A stretch of 64,000 nucleotides of DNA from Arthrobacter sp. FW306-2-2C-D06B. Its GTDB lineage: Bacteria > Actinomycetota > Actinomycetes > Actinomycetales > Micrococcaceae. Shown here piece by piece: positions 2,508-7,446 of the stretch (position 1 is the stretch's first letter; the number at the start of each line of letters is the position of its first letter). Made by a program: the position numbers and the translations under genes. The stretch is from NCBI RefSeq assembly GCF_021789175.1, contig NZ_CP084560.1, positions 4,402,001-4,466,000 on the forward strand. The letters run 5' to 3'. The notes under the pieces are model-generated. The model made no database searches and was not told the DNA's origin. It was given only the letters and a program-made list of their open reading frames with translations.

Positions 2508-3539
2508 TCAGTTTTGGGGTTTTACTGCGTGTTTGGGGGCAAGCGGCTCCTGCTCGGCGGAGTCCTCCAACGTGTCAGTTGCTCTCTCTTTTTTCTGTAC
2601 CCTGCGGGCCCATGCTGAGGTCACGATGGGGCAGAGTATTGCGGAGACGACGACCGAGGCTGCCACGAGGACGGTGGCGTGGTTAGCGGCTGGGGCGTAG
2701 ACGGGGTTGGCGGTGGCGATGATGGCCGGGACAAGGGCGGCGTTGCCGGCTGTGGTTGCTGCGGCGAGGCCGGCGACGCCGTCGCCGCCGGTGAGCTTGT
2801 CGGCCAATAGCAGCACGGCGCCGCCGACGAAGACCACGAACAGGCCGAGGACGATGCCGAGCAGTCCTGCTTCGACGACTGCGTTGAGGTTGATGGTCAG
2901 GCCGAGGGCCAGGCCGAGGAACGGCACCATCGCGGGCACCAGCGGGGCCAGGAGATTCCGCATGTTTTTGTCCAAGTTTCCCAGGAGCATGCCCAGTGCC
3001 AGCGGGAGGATGGCGCCGACGAGTGCCTGCCAGGGGAAGGCGGACAGGCCGGCGATGCCGAGGGTGACCATGGTCAGGAAGGGGCCTGATTCCAGGGACA
3101 GGATGGAGTAGGCGCCCGCGTCGCGTTTGCGGCCGTACTGGCCCATGAGGGAGATGTAAAGACCGCCGTTGGTGTCGTTGAGTGCGGCGACGAGTGCGAG
3201 GGTTGAGAGGCCTGCGAGGATTCCTGAGTCGATGGGTGCTTCGCCGAGGAAGCGTCCGGCGATGACGCCGATGAGGATGGCGAAGAGGATCTTGGAGCCC
3301 AGCAGCACGCCGCCTTTTTTGAGGATGTAGGGCGTGGATTTCACTTCGAGTGTTGCGCCGAGGCATACGAAGAACACGGCCAGGAGGGGTGCCAGGCCGG
3401 TGAAGAATGCGCCGGTGAAGGATCCGAAGAATTTTCCTGCGTCAGGTGCCAGGGTATGGATGACGGCGCCGATGCCAAGGGGCACCAGCATCATGCCGCC
3501 GGGGACTTTGTCCAGGGCTTTCTTGATGGGAATCGACAT
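2508..3539 (-). CDS. kdgT: 2-keto-3-deoxygluconate permease family transporter
   Basis: The 343-residue protein starts MSIPIKKALDKVPGGMM, the characteristic opening of KdgT proteins, and has about ten hydrophobic helices. The family imports sugar acids such as 2-keto-3-deoxygluconate by proton symport. It is the last gene of the minus-strand operon RuBisCO-like protein, DUF1537 kinase, zinc dehydrogenase, permease, 76 nt after the dehydrogenase. The partner enzymes suggest that this copy carries a four- or five-carbon branched sugar acid rather than ketodeoxygluconate. That reassignment is inference from context. The C-terminal tail after about residue 315 is charged and variable. Confidence 0.88.
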   Translation of the reverse strand: MSIPIKKALDKVPGGMMLVPLGIGAVIHTLAPDAGKFFGSFTGAFFTGLAPLLAVFFVCLGATLEVKSTPYILKKGGVLLGSKILFAILIGVIAGRFLGEAPIDSGILAGLSTLALVAALNDTNGGLYISLMGQYGRKRDAGAYSILSLESGPFLTMVTLGIAGLSAFPWQALVGAILPLALGMLLGNLDKNMRNLLAPLVPAMVPFLGLALGLTINLNAVVEAGLLGIVLGLFVVFVGGAVLLLADKLTGGDGVAGLAAATTAGNAALVPAIIATANPVYAPAANHATVLVAASVVVSAILCPIVTSAWARRVQKKERATDTLEDSAEQEPLAPKHAVKPQN

Positions 3540-3615
3540 TGATTTCTCCTGTGAATGGCTGGGGTGTGCTTGGTCCGCGCGCTCGGGGGGGCGGGTGCGC
3601 GGGTGGGGGGTGTGT

Positions 3616-4659
3616 TTAGCCCAGGCCCGGGATGAGCAGGACTTTGCAGGCGTCTGCGGTGAGCAGTTCGACGGCTTCGTCGATGTCGCTGAGCTTCTTG
3701 CGGTGGGTGATGAGCCAGTCCAGTTCCAGCCTTCCGGAATCGAGGAGCAGCAGGCTTTGTTCCCAGGTTTCCCAGAGCCGGCGTCCGAAGATGCCGCGCA
3801 GGGTGATGCCCTTTTTGCTGATGTAGGCGGCGATGTCGACTTCTGCGGGGCGGCTGGGGTGTCCGACGGTGATGACGGTCGCTTCGCGGCGGACGGCTTC
3901 GAAGAGTGTTGTCAGGGTGCCGGGGGCTCCGGAGCATTCGAAGGCGACGTCGAAGCCGCCGCGGCGGCCGGTCAGTTCGCGGCAGCGGTCGATGATGCCG
4001 TCGTTGGGGTGCAGGGCTGTCGCGCCGAGTTTCTCGGCTTGGGCCCTTCGGTAGGGGTTGGGGTCGACGGCGATGACATGGCTGGCGCCCATGAGTAGTG
4101 CCAGGTTCACGACGACGAGTCCGACGGGGCCGGCGCCGCTGACGAGCACGGCCCGGCCTGCGACGGAGTAGTTGGCGCGCTGGATGGCGTGGACGGCGAC
4201 GCCGGCGGCTTCGAGCAGGGCCCCGGATTCCAGGGACAGGCCGGTGGGGAGCTTGACGCAGATTTCTTGCGGGACGGCTGCGTACTCGGCGAAGACACCG
4301 TCGATGTGCATGCCGAGGATGCCGGTGCGTTCGCAGGTGTGTGCGTCGCCGGTGCGGCAGGGGAAGCACTGGCCGCAGGTGAGGTGGCTTTCGAGGGCGA
4401 CCTGGTCGCCGACCTTGAGCCCGGTGACGCCGGGGCCGACTTCGATGATGGTTCCTGCGCCTTCGTGGCCGAGGATGACCGGGAGGTTGAGGTTGAATGC
4501 CTGGGCTGAGGGGGTCCATTCGTAGAGTTCGCGGTCGGTGCCGCACAGGGAGGCTGCGCCGACTTCGATGACGACGGAGCCTTCTGTTGCTTTGGGATCG
4601 CCGGCGTCGGTGACGTAGGTGACGCCTCGCTCGGCTGCGTTCTTGACTACTGCCCGCAT
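3616..4659 (-). CDS. Zinc-dependent medium-chain alcohol/polyol dehydrogenase
   Basis: This 347-residue MDR-family dehydrogenase has the catalytic-zinc residues C39 and H65-E66 (GHEGAGT). A structural-zinc lobe has four cysteines at about 95, 98, 101 and 109, and the Rossmann motif is GAGPVG. The overall shape is like threonine, sorbitol and tetritol dehydrogenases. It lies 51 nt downstream of the DUF1537 kinase and 76 nt upstream of kdgT. It probably oxidises a hydroxyl of a sugar acid to the keto form used by the kinase, in an NAD-dependent reaction. The exact substrate is not known. Confidence 0.85.
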   Translation of the reverse strand: MRAVVKNAAERGVTYVTDAGDPKATEGSVVIEVGAASLCGTDRELYEWTPSAQAFNLNLPVILGHEGAGTIIEVGPGVTGLKVGDQVALESHLTCGQCFPCRTGDAHTCERTGILGMHIDGVFAEYAAVPQEICVKLPTGLSLESGALLEAAGVAVHAIQRANYSVAGRAVLVSGAGPVGLVVVNLALLMGASHVIAVDPNPYRRAQAEKLGATALHPNDGIIDRCRELTGRRGGFDVAFECSGAPGTLTTLFEAVRREATVITVGHPSRPAEVDIAAYISKKGITLRGIFGRRLWETWEQSLLLLDSGRLELDWLITHRKKLSDIDEAVELLTADACKVLLIPGLG

Positions 4660-4710
4660 GGGGGCCGCCTTTCGTTGGTTCTGGTGATGCGCGGAGGAAT
4701 TGTGTTGGGG

Positions 4711-6009: not shown

Positions 6010-6010
6010 G

Positions 6011-7276
6011 TCAGGCACCTTTCCCGAACGTCTGGACCGCATGCAACAGGGCGTCGTCTCCAGTTTCCGCCTGCCTGGCGGCTGCAGTCTGCAGCGGGAC
6101 CCTGTCCACGGCTGCTTCCCATGCCTGGCGCAGGCTGCGCACTCCGGCGCCGGGACCGTCCGGGTGCGCGGCGACCCCGCCGCCGGCCAGCATCATCAGA
6201 TCGGTGGAACCCACCGCGTCGAAAGTGGGGCCGGGAGTGGTGACGTTCTGCCCCGAGGACAACACGGGAACTGGTGTGATGGTCTGTCCCAGAGGTTCGA
6301 GCAGGCTGCGGATGTTGGCCGCGACTTCTTCGTCGAGTTCGTAGAACTTGCTGCCCAGGCCGCTGGCGTGCAGGTGGTCGGCGCCGGCAAGGCGGGCCAT
6401 CTGCTGCCAGACCCGGTAGTCCATGCCCAGGGCTTTGGACCGCATGGAGGCGGCGAGGCCCGCGCGGTGGCCGTGGATGGGGACCTGGGCGAAGCTGCGG
6501 AGCAACGCAAGGGCCGGCATTCCCATCACGGGGATGTTCAGCATCACGCAGCGGCCACCGGACTCCACCACCAGGTCGTGGCGCTTTTGCAGGCCGGCAA
6601 GATCGCCGGTGATGTTGAAGGCATACATCGTCGAGTGGCCCGTGACCTGCTCGGCGGCACGGATTTCCTCGGTAGCGACCGCGACCCGGCGTTCCAGCGG
6701 CAGGTACTCCGGATCAGTCATCAGCTCGTCATCCTTGATCAGGTCGATGGAGGCCATCGCCAGATCCCGGACCACCAGCCTGAACTCTTCTTCCGAGAGC
6801 CCGACGTTGGGTTTGACGATGGTGCCGACCATGACGCCCTGAACGTCACTGATGAGCTTGCGCGTCCCCTCGATGCCGAAGGCCGGGCCGGGGTGGGCGG
6901 CGACGAAGTCTCCGGGCAGCTGCATATCCTGCAACCGGCAGGCATACAGATCGCCCAGTTCGAAAAGATTGCCTGCGATGGCAGTCTGCAAGGTGGCCAG
7001 GTCGGTGCCGATGTTCTCCATCGGGAAATCAACGGTCACCAGTGCGGCACGGACTTTTTCCGGGTTGGCCCGTGACGGCAGGGAGGGGCGGCAGAAGCCG
7101 AGCTCCTGGATATCGGCTATCCGGGCGGCGTGCCGTTCCCGGATCCGGGCGGATTCGCCAGGCACCGGCAGGAACGTGCCGCTGGACTGCTCACCCGCCA
7201 TGATGGTGGCGGCCTTCTCGGGCTCAATCTCAGACTCTAGGTAATAGGTGCAACGCACCGAGCGCGGGTCGCGCAT
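6011..7276 (-). CDS. RuBisCO-like protein (large-subunit family), OiaX-type candidate
   Basis: This is a 421-residue form IV RuBisCO homologue. The active-site lysine is kept in GTIVKPNVGLS (K155), but the second lysine of the true RuBisCO motif is N157. The metal-binding loop IKDDE (K181, D183, E184) is intact, and the phosphate-site GGGVAAHPDGPGAG lies near residue 370. It therefore should enolise a phosphorylated ketose acid but not fix CO2. Start 7276 (ATG) has GGAGAG just upstream. An upstream GTG at 7324 lacks one. With a DUF1537 kinase next to it, it may be a 3-oxo-isoapionate-4-phosphate decarboxylase. It is the first gene of the operon. Confidence 0.9.
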   Translation of the reverse strand: MRDPRSVRCTYYLESEIEPEKAATIMAGEQSSGTFLPVPGESARIRERHAARIADIQELGFCRPSLPSRANPEKVRAALVTVDFPMENIGTDLATLQTAIAGNLFELGDLYACRLQDMQLPGDFVAAHPGPAFGIEGTRKLISDVQGVMVGTIVKPNVGLSEEEFRLVVRDLAMASIDLIKDDELMTDPEYLPLERRVAVATEEIRAAEQVTGHSTMYAFNITGDLAGLQKRHDLVVESGGRCVMLNIPVMGMPALALLRSFAQVPIHGHRAGLAASMRSKALGMDYRVWQQMARLAGADHLHASGLGSKFYELDEEVAANIRSLLEPLGQTITPVPVLSSGQNVTTPGPTFDAVGSTDLMMLAGGGVAAHPDGPGAGVRSLRQAWEAAVDRVPLQTAAARQAETGDDALLHAVQTFGKGA

Positions 7277-7421
7277 GGACTCTCCAATTCGAGGGGTTTT
7301 GGAACTCACGTATCCGACTGTCACCTGCAGGTACTTTCACTTCGCTCACGCGCCAATGCGGGCTCAAGCAGGTGACTCGCACTCCGTATCCATGGCATCT
7401 TCCGTGATCCCAGGGCCGAAG

Positions 7422-7446
7422 TTGTACGTACCTTTGATACGTACAA
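7422..7446. promoter_or_regulatory. Perfect palindromic operator between RuBisCO-like operon and gntR
   Basis: Nine-base arms TTGTACGTA (7422-7430) and TACGTACAA (7438-7446) are exact complements around a 7-base centre. Each arm also holds the self-complementary core TACGTA. The site lies in the 271-bp divergent region and overlaps possible -35/-10 bases for gntR (TTGTAC, 17 bp, AATAAT). It is most simply the binding site of the adjacent HutC-type GntR regulator, controlling both directions. The rest of 7277-7547 shows no other clear element. Confidence 0.75.

What the first reader, a model, noticed from the sequence alone, without database searches (positions are those of the whole stretch)
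2508..7446. RuBisCO-like acid-sugar operon without the usual partner set
The sequence shows a form IV RuBisCO homologue (K155, N157, KDDE intact) one base before a DUF1537 kinase, then a zinc MDR dehydrogenase and a KdgT permease. Established knowledge: RuBisCO-like decarboxylases of the OiaX class act with OiaK kinases in D-apionate use. The dehydrogenase and KdgT replace the apionate oxidoisomerase, so the entry substrate may differ: a branched acid, threonate, or a hamamelonate-type sugar acid. This is inference.
Basis: partly seen in the sequence, partly recalled or inferred. Interest (0 to 1): 0.75.

Follow-up and report, generated by a model that had tools for sequence, protein, structure and literature searches.

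The report
RuBisCO-like operon for sugar acids
A soil bacterium carries a compact set of genes (importer, dehydrogenase, kinase and a RuBisCO relative) with its own regulator that probably breaks down a plant-derived sugar acid; the RuBisCO relative keeps most of RuBisCO's catalytic residues, and the exact substrate is still unknown.

Summary
The operon is real: minus-strand RuBisCO-like protein (RLP), DUF1537 kinase, zinc MDR dehydrogenase and KdgT permease behind a divergent GntR regulator. All four stand together in 30 of 30 actinobacterial loci examined (12 named genera), GntR in 27. A palindrome overlaps the promoter and occurs once exactly in the genome, so the set looks self-contained. 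Sulphur-salvage models fit worse. No apionate oxidoisomerase relative was found in the genome. The dehydrogenase is closest to L-threonine 3-dehydrogenase, which suits oxidation at C3. Best reading (inference): uptake of a sugar acid, C3 oxidation, phosphorylation, then RuBisCO-like C-C cleavage. Hamamelonate (2-carboxyarabinitol) is my first substrate guess, isoapionate next; threonate is less likely because a threonate-type locus lies elsewhere. Tetrulose isomerase relatives elsewhere in the genome leave plain decarboxylation open. New variant of a known kind.

The parts
6011..7279 (-). RuBisCO-like protein (422 aa), PF00016 + PF02788; of 20 RuBisCO positions checked it keeps 15 (E60 T65 N123 K175 K201 D203 E204 H294 R295 H327 K334 S379 G381 G403 G404 = its residues E29 T34 N103 K155 K181 D183 E184 H270 R271 H303 K310 S340 G342 G365 G366) and changes 5 (W66F K177N H298L L335F G380S)
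   Evidence: position numbers recalled
4711..6009 (-). DUF1537 acid-sugar kinase (SBD_N PF07005 + NBD_C PF17042), 432 aa
3616..4659 (-). Zinc MDR dehydrogenase, 347 aa; the five best-scoring solved chains are L-threonine 3-dehydrogenases; four-cysteine motif CGQCFPCRTGDAHTC visible in the translation (meaning as structural zinc site recalled)
2508..3539 (-). KdgT-family permease (PF03812), 343 aa
7524..8414 (+). Divergent GntR/UTRA transcriptional regulator, 296 aa
7443..7471 (-). Sigma-70-like promoter TTGACG-17-TATTGT in front of the RLP gene
   Evidence: 1 found, 0.3 expected; identical hexamers and spacing in 12 of 27 intergenic regions, window included
7424..7444 (.). Palindrome GTACGTA-N7-TACGTAC, likely GntR operator, overlapping the last two bases of the -10 hexamer; the only exact match to GTMCGTA-N7-TACGKAC in the genome

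Best explanation
A substrate-induced, self-contained catabolic operon for a sugar acid with a secondary alcohol at C3. KdgT imports the acid; the threonine-dehydrogenase-like MDR oxidises C3 to a 3-oxo (beta-keto) acid; the DUF1537 kinase phosphorylates the terminal hydroxyl; the RLP then breaks the carbon chain, using the RuBisCO-type active site for more than plain decarboxylation (hydrolysis, transcarboxylation/hydrolysis or oxygenation), to give central metabolites such as 3-phosphoglycerate plus a small acid. GntR represses from the palindrome at the promoter until the substrate or an intermediate binds. Shown: gene set, conservation, palindrome, residue pattern, families. Inferred: every reaction, the order of steps, the repression and the substrate. 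First substrate guess is hamamelonate (2-carboxyarabinitol), about 0.3; isoapionate-type C5 acids next.
For: 30 of 30 loci keep RLP-kinase-MDR in that order plus a KdgT, 27 of 30 a GntR. RLP and kinase trees each put the 31 window-type rows they hold in one clade, 100/100. Palindrome exact in 21 of 27 intergenic regions (window + 26 loci), one mismatch in 5, three in 1 (the pattern was derived from these same regions); one exact site in the genome. E60, N123, H327 and S379 kept in 31 of 31 clade members and in 27 of 27 other non-OiaX RLPs of the alignment, lost in 6 of 6 OiaX. MDR nearest to L-threonine 3-dehydrogenase, which oxidises a C3 hydroxyl of a 2-substituted acid (recalled). DUF1537 kinases act on acid sugars (PMC10971088, passages). 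An RLP in hamamelose use, with 3-phosphoglycerate and glycolate named, is mentioned in PMC8914248 (passages; its wording is unclear, that these are products is my reading), and RLP oxygenation in PMC10176493 (passages). Pyruvate kinase stands beside KdgT in the Rhodococcus locus and in the B. elkanii RLP locus.
Against: No substrate evidence at all. Pyruvate kinase and glycerate kinase each occur in 1 of 30 window-type loci; the glycerate kinase is about 5 kb past the MDR on a plasmid stretch with transposases. The genome has relatives of the tetrulose-phosphate isomerases LerI (43% identity) and RpiB (47%) about 3 kb apart elsewhere, so a plain decarboxylase feeding erythrulose phosphate is not excluded. 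Five of 20 RuBisCO positions are changed, G380 and W66 among them. Residue retention shows capacity, not reaction. The Rhodococcus locus L039 has no exact palindrome and L018, L019, L021 no matched GntR. No characterised OiaT or hamamelose RLP sequence could be identified for comparison.
Confidence: 0.55

Rival explanations
1. The RLP is a plain beta-keto-acid decarboxylase working like OiaX: MDR oxidises isoapionate (2-C-hydroxymethyl-tetronate) to 3-oxo-isoapionate, the kinase makes the 4-phosphate, the RLP decarboxylates it to erythrulose phosphate, and chromosomal LerI/RpiB-type isomerases take it onward.
For: Best NCBIfam models for RLP and kinase are OiaX and OiaK, though far below cut-off; the genome has LerI/RpiB relatives about 3 kb apart at 1.07 Mb.
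Against: Active-site signature unlike 6 of 6 OiaX; the one OiaX in the tree groups with the Bacteroidota RLPs and not with this clade (it has a long branch, 1.27); no LerI, RpiB or ApnO relative in the stretches held for the 30 loci. That last point is weak: LerI and RpiB stand in only 2 of the 6 OiaX loci held, ApnO in 4 of 6.
Confidence: 0.17
2. C4 route: MDR oxidises L-threonate or D-erythronate at C3, kinase makes 3-oxo-tetronate 4-phosphate, RLP decarboxylates it to dihydroxyacetone phosphate in place of OtnC.
For: MDR resembles L-threonine 3-dehydrogenase; the second best kinase model is 3-oxo-tetronate kinase (125.4 bits, cut-off 350).
Against: A separate locus at 0.17 Mb in the same genome has a DUF1537 kinase (no NCBIfam match at 1e-20), an L-threonate-dehydrogenase-type protein (244.3 bits, cut-off 350) and a GntP transporter over its cut-off; the retained residues would be unnecessary for plain decarboxylation (inference).
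Confidence: 0.12
3. Another branched or modified acid (for example 2-C-methyl-erythronate or a C6 linear aldonate) is the substrate of the same four-step scheme.
For: Position 298 is L in 31 of 31 clade members but W in 21 of the 33 other DUF1537-type RLPs aligned, so the pocket may differ.
Against: No positive evidence for any particular acid.
Confidence: 0.12
4. The RLP belongs to the sulphur-salvage (MtnW enolase or isomerase) group.
For: It is a form IV-like RuBisCO relative.
Against: MtnW models score 177.5 and 144.0 bits against 363.5 for OiaX; MtnW structure 142.5 bits against 320.2 for 3nwr; the neighbours are an acid-sugar kinase and a KdgT. No MtnW sequence was in the tree.
Confidence: 0.02

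Closest known systems
D-apiose/D-apionate pathway with RLP OiaX and kinase OiaK (Carter et al. 2018, recalled, not held; cited in PMC6302742 and PMC10176493)
   Same: RLP next to a DUF1537 kinase; presumably a phosphorylated 3-oxo acid as RLP substrate.
   Different: No ApnO found; Zn MDR and KdgT instead of ApnO and ABC transporter; RLP and kinase below OiaX/OiaK cut-offs; active-site residues 60, 123, 177, 327, 379 differ.
OiaT, 3-oxo-isoapionate-4-phosphate transcarboxylase/hydrolase (products 3-phosphoglycerate + glycolate recalled)
   Same: An RLP that does more than decarboxylate. JGI uses this name for 4 of the 120 listed relatives of the window RLP; the name appears in neither 120-row listing for L041 and L042.
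   Different: No verified OiaT sequence was available; partner enzyme is MDR, not ApnO.
D-hamamelose pathway RLP oxygenase of Ochrobactrum anthropi (Kim, Lim, Lee 2018; paper not held, seen only as cited in PMC8914248, PMC10176493, PMC8319343, PMC10173188)
   Same: RLP acting late in use of a branched sugar.
   Different: Gene set there not seen; here there is no sugar dehydrogenase or lactonase in the operon, only an acid-type permease.
Proteobacterial RLP + DUF1537 + TRAP loci (L043, L044, L061, L063, L064), with an SDR dehydrogenase in L043, L044 and L061
   Same: Acid-type transporter + kinase + RLP, with a dehydrogenase in three of the five.
   Different: SDR and TRAP in place of MDR and KdgT; RLP 39-46% identical to the window's.

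Membership tests
OiaX 3-oxo-isoapionate-4-phosphate decarboxylase | NCBIfam NF042437 score over 700 bits | tested here: not met
   363.5 bits; six reference OiaX score 759-790
OiaX 3-oxo-isoapionate-4-phosphate decarboxylase | Active-site signature D60 G123 A177 Q327 G/C379 shared by the six OiaX examined | tested here: not met
   window E60 N123 N177 H327 S379
D-apionate pathway | ApnO oxidoisomerase in locus or genome | tested here: not met
   0 of 30 loci within the stretches held; none in own genome (a search without its own positive control); a closely related ApnO query found ApnO in 7 other loci by tblastn
OiaK 3-oxo-isoapionate kinase | NCBIfam NF042436 score over 700 bits | tested here: not met
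   185.1 bits
OiaT transcarboxylase/hydrolase | Homology to a characterised OiaT and 3-phosphoglycerate + glycolate as products | not testable with these tools
   no verified OiaT sequence found; activity needs an assay
DUF1537 acid-sugar kinase family | SBD_N + NBD_C domains over Pfam cut-offs | tested here: met
   156.4 and 76.9 bits
RuBisCO superfamily | PF00016 catalytic domain with K201/D203/E204 metal site | tested here: met
   190.4 bits; residues kept
Genuine carboxylating RuBisCO (forms I-III) | Catalytic residues incl. W66, K177, G380; score over form III cut-off | tested here: not met
   F66, N177, S380; 226.6 bits against 497.45
Sulphur-salvage RLP (MtnW) | NCBIfam MtnW score over cut-off | tested here: not met
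   177.5 against 409 and 144.0 against 513.6
L-threonine 3-dehydrogenase | NCBIfam Tdh score over cut-off | tested here: not met
   278.8 against 380 and 277.7 against 458.35
Hamamelose pathway (Kim 2018) | Growth on hamamelose/hamamelonate, RLP products 3-phosphoglycerate + glycolate | not testable with these tools
   needs growth and enzyme tests

The most novel reading that the evidence does not exclude
Soil actinobacteria use a RuBisCO relative to eat hamamelonate, i.e. 2-carboxyarabinitol, the compound from which plants make their nocturnal RuBisCO inhibitor. MDR and kinase would turn it into 3-keto-2-carboxyarabinitol 5-phosphate, which is RuBisCO's own six-carbon intermediate without the C1 phosphate, and the RLP would hydrolyse it, running only the second half of the RuBisCO reaction, to 3-phosphoglycerate and glycerate.
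Probability: 0.2. Interest if true: 0.85.

Novelty: new variant of a known kind. Interest (0 to 1): 0.55.

Why it matters
If right, it adds a RuBisCO-superfamily enzyme that keeps most of the RuBisCO active site but has a catabolic role, useful for separating which residues serve decarboxylation, carboxylation and hydrolysis. It would also give a catabolic route for a plant branched acid, and it warns against passing the OiaX name to DUF1537-linked RLPs.

Tried and rejected
OiaX membership: rejected on HMM scores and residues. Sulphur salvage: rejected on HMM and structure-sequence scores, not by a tree. Missing tetrulose isomerases as proof against decarboxylation: rejected, because the genome has LerI/RpiB relatives elsewhere and only 2 of 6 OiaX loci carry them. 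Pyruvate kinase and glycerate kinase as product evidence: kept only as a hint, since each is seen in one window-type locus. A wider GntR regulon: none found; the second genomic site has one mismatch and the reversed control pattern gave as many hits in all. Search for a named OiaT reference by homology: the name appears in neither 120-row listing. More genomes from another order for window-type loci: the order reached had 22 genomes and no match. The Carter 2018, Kim 2018 and Zhang 2016 papers are not held. In the listings (several capped; judged by title and start of abstract) I saw no paper describing this operon, which is no proof that none exists. A first gene-calling script merged neighbouring frames; its gene lists were not used for counts.

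Rows dropped before counts: L036, L038, L047, L048, L059 and L069-L077 as duplicates of other loci (trees and residue counts), L066 and L068 also from the residue counts. L029 is missing from the RLP tree and L011 from the kinase tree (length filter). L011 and L029 show a broken RLP or kinase match. L018 and L019 have identical RLPs; L005 and L013 are two loci of one strain (EpRS71), so the 30 loci are not 30 genomes. Stretches held beside the RLP are shorter than 8 kb on one or both sides in 10 of the 29 genome-contig loci, so absence of neighbours is claimed only within them. After the one check asked for, I mended: KdgT of the second lineage lies between GntR and RLP in 13 of 14 loci, not all; glycerate kinase distance; the omitted G380S and L335F changes; the exact promoter count.
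Full report
OBSERVATION. The window holds a minus-strand operon: RLP 6011-7279, DUF1537 kinase 4711-6009, zinc MDR dehydrogenase 3616-4659, KdgT permease 2508-3539, with gaps of 1, 51 and 76 bases (coordinates, starts chosen by me; longer frames to 7324 and 6042 exist). A GntR/UTRA regulator (7524-8414) is divergent. The Pfam hits that name these proteins are above cut-off. The window lies at C1:4402001-4466000 of a 4.56 Mb single-contig genome, which has one RuBisCO-fold gene and two DUF1537 kinases.

CONSERVATION. A scan of genome contigs gave 35 loci, 29 of them actinobacterial. 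With the Rhodococcus DMU1 plasmid (the one record of 365 in the 60-80% identity band; locus) that makes 30. In 30 of 30 the RLP, kinase and an MDR of over 55% identity follow in that order, and a KdgT is present; GntR is matched in 27 (not in L018, L019, L021). Named genera are Arthrobacter, Pseudarthrobacter, Glutamicibacter, Pseudonocardia, Kitasatospora, Streptomyces, Geodermatophilus, Blastococcus, Cryobacterium, Ornithinimicrobium, Leucobacter and Rhodococcus. Two of the 30 are from one strain (EpRS71) and two have identical RLPs (L018, L019). KdgT comes in two lineages: one over 60% identical to the window's (16 loci) and one at about 35% (14 loci); the second lies upstream of the RLP in all 14, between GntR and RLP in 13 of them (not in L016). 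The operon is patchy: 3 of 197 family genomes, own genome included. In a class sample 12 of 394 genomes matched at E <= 1e-80; two of these (own genome and one at 94%) are window-type and ten are a second type at 44-48%.

REGULATION. The intergenic region holds a TTGACG-17-TATTGT promoter (identical in 12 of 27 regions) whose -10 end overlaps a palindrome GTACGTA-N7-TACGTAC. The degenerate form is exact in 21 of 27 intergenic regions (window plus 26 loci), one mismatch off in 5 and three off in L028. The pattern was derived from these regions, so the counts describe rather than test it; L039 was not in that set and has no exact match. In the whole genome there is one exact site; the only other site has one mismatch, and the reversed control gave as many hits in all. 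I infer a local repressor with this operon as its only target, hence a self-contained pathway.

PHYLOGENY. In a 62-row tree (61 different) the 31 window-type RLPs form one clade (100/100, stem 1.05). They join ten actinobacterial RLPs of another locus type at 98/98; those ten hold together only at 92/65. The OiaX sequence L045 groups with Bacteroidota RLPs (98/92) on a long branch (1.27). The kinase tree again holds 31 window-type rows in one clade, 100/100, with a warning that long branches meet at L058. No MtnW sequence was in the tree, so the sulphur-salvage question rests on scores: OiaX 363.5, form III 226.6, MtnW 177.5 and 144.0 bits, all below their cut-offs; closest solved chain 3nwr 320.2 bits, MtnW structure 142.5.

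ACTIVE SITE. Mapped through a form I RbcL (numbering recalled), 31 of 31 clade members keep E60, T65, N123, K175, K201, D203, E204, H294, R295, H327, K334, S379, G403 and G404; G381 is kept in 30 of 31. W66 is F, K177 is N, H298 is L, L335 is F and G380 is S in 31 of 31. Six RLPs that pass the OiaX cut-off (759-790 bits) all have D60, G123, A177 and Q327, with G (5) or C (1) at 379. The 27 other non-OiaX RLPs of that alignment keep E60, N123, H327 and S379. So the window RLP is not an OiaX, and it keeps positions that I expect a plain decarboxylase could lose (inference).

CHEMISTRY (inference). The MDR is nearest to L-threonine 3-dehydrogenase (241 bits; below the Tdh cut-offs). Such an enzyme could make a 3-oxo acid directly, replacing ApnO if the acid already has its skeleton (isoapionate or hamamelonate type). 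ApnO is in 0 of 30 loci within the stretches held and was not found in the genome (a search without its own positive control). The DUF1537 kinase would phosphorylate the 3-oxo acid, and the RLP would cleave it. A hamamelose-pathway RLP, with 3-phosphoglycerate and glycolate named in unclear wording, is mentioned in PMC8914248 (passages), and RLP oxygenation in PMC10176493 (passages), both citing Kim 2018, which I did not see. 2-carboxyarabinitol 1-phosphate and hamamelonic acid phosphate are the same compound by the title of a reference listed in PMC9833046, and in several species the light-period leaf pool of 2-carboxyarabinitol exceeds its phosphate in the dark (PMC9833046, passages); that makes it a plausible soil substrate. 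Threonate is less likely because another DUF1537 kinase stands beside an L-threonate-dehydrogenase-type protein (244.3 bits, cut-off 350) and a GntP permease at 0.17 Mb.

AGAINST. No substrate data. LerI and RpiB relatives (43% and 47%) lie about 3 kb apart at 1.07 Mb, with other ORFs of what looks like a tetrulose pathway (read by eye, not tested), so a decarboxylase product would have an outlet. LerI and RpiB stand in only 2 of 6 OiaX loci and ApnO in 4 of 6, so neighbourhood logic is soft. Pyruvate kinase and glycerate kinase each occur in 1 of 30 window-type loci.

VERDICT. Real, conserved, not OiaX, not sulphur salvage by scores; an unassigned branch of the acid-sugar RLPs that keeps 15 of 20 RuBisCO positions checked. 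New variant of a known kind.

Noticed in passing
L031, L035, L046, L069-L073, L075, L076: Other RLP + DUF1537 loci stand beside a GH127 beta-L-arabinofuranosidase-like protein (Pfam confirmed for L069, L031 and L046; the others by similarity cluster), several with an Asp/Glu racemase-like protein; possibly use of a branched sugar released from plant cell walls.
   Followed up: partly
window 8517-14214: Next to the operon lies a LacI regulator, a sugar ABC-type binding protein with permease-like ORFs, and a GFO/IDH/MocA oxidoreductase whose best model is levoglucosan dehydrogenase (355.4 bits, cut-off 650); probably a separate pathway.
   Followed up: no
L078:9323-13347 (genome C1 about 174.8-178.8 kb): Second DUF1537 kinase with an L-threonate-dehydrogenase-type protein and a GntP permease.
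   Followed up: yes
L092 (genome C1 about 1.066-1.074 Mb): RpiB-type and LerI/TPI-type isomerases about 3 kb apart with other ORFs, resembling an erythrulose pathway.
   Followed up: partly
30 window-type loci: KdgT has been exchanged between two distant lineages, at different positions in the operon.
   Followed up: partly
L095:12345-27023: In Rhodococcus sp. DMU1 a pyruvate kinase follows KdgT beside the operon; glycerate kinase and D-glycerate dehydrogenase lie about 5-6 kb beyond the MDR.
   Followed up: partly
L040: A haloarchaeal RLP + DUF1537 locus also has a zinc-binding dehydrogenase (28% to the window MDR) about 0.4 kb after the kinase, with a short SDR-annotated gene between on the other strand.
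   Followed up: no
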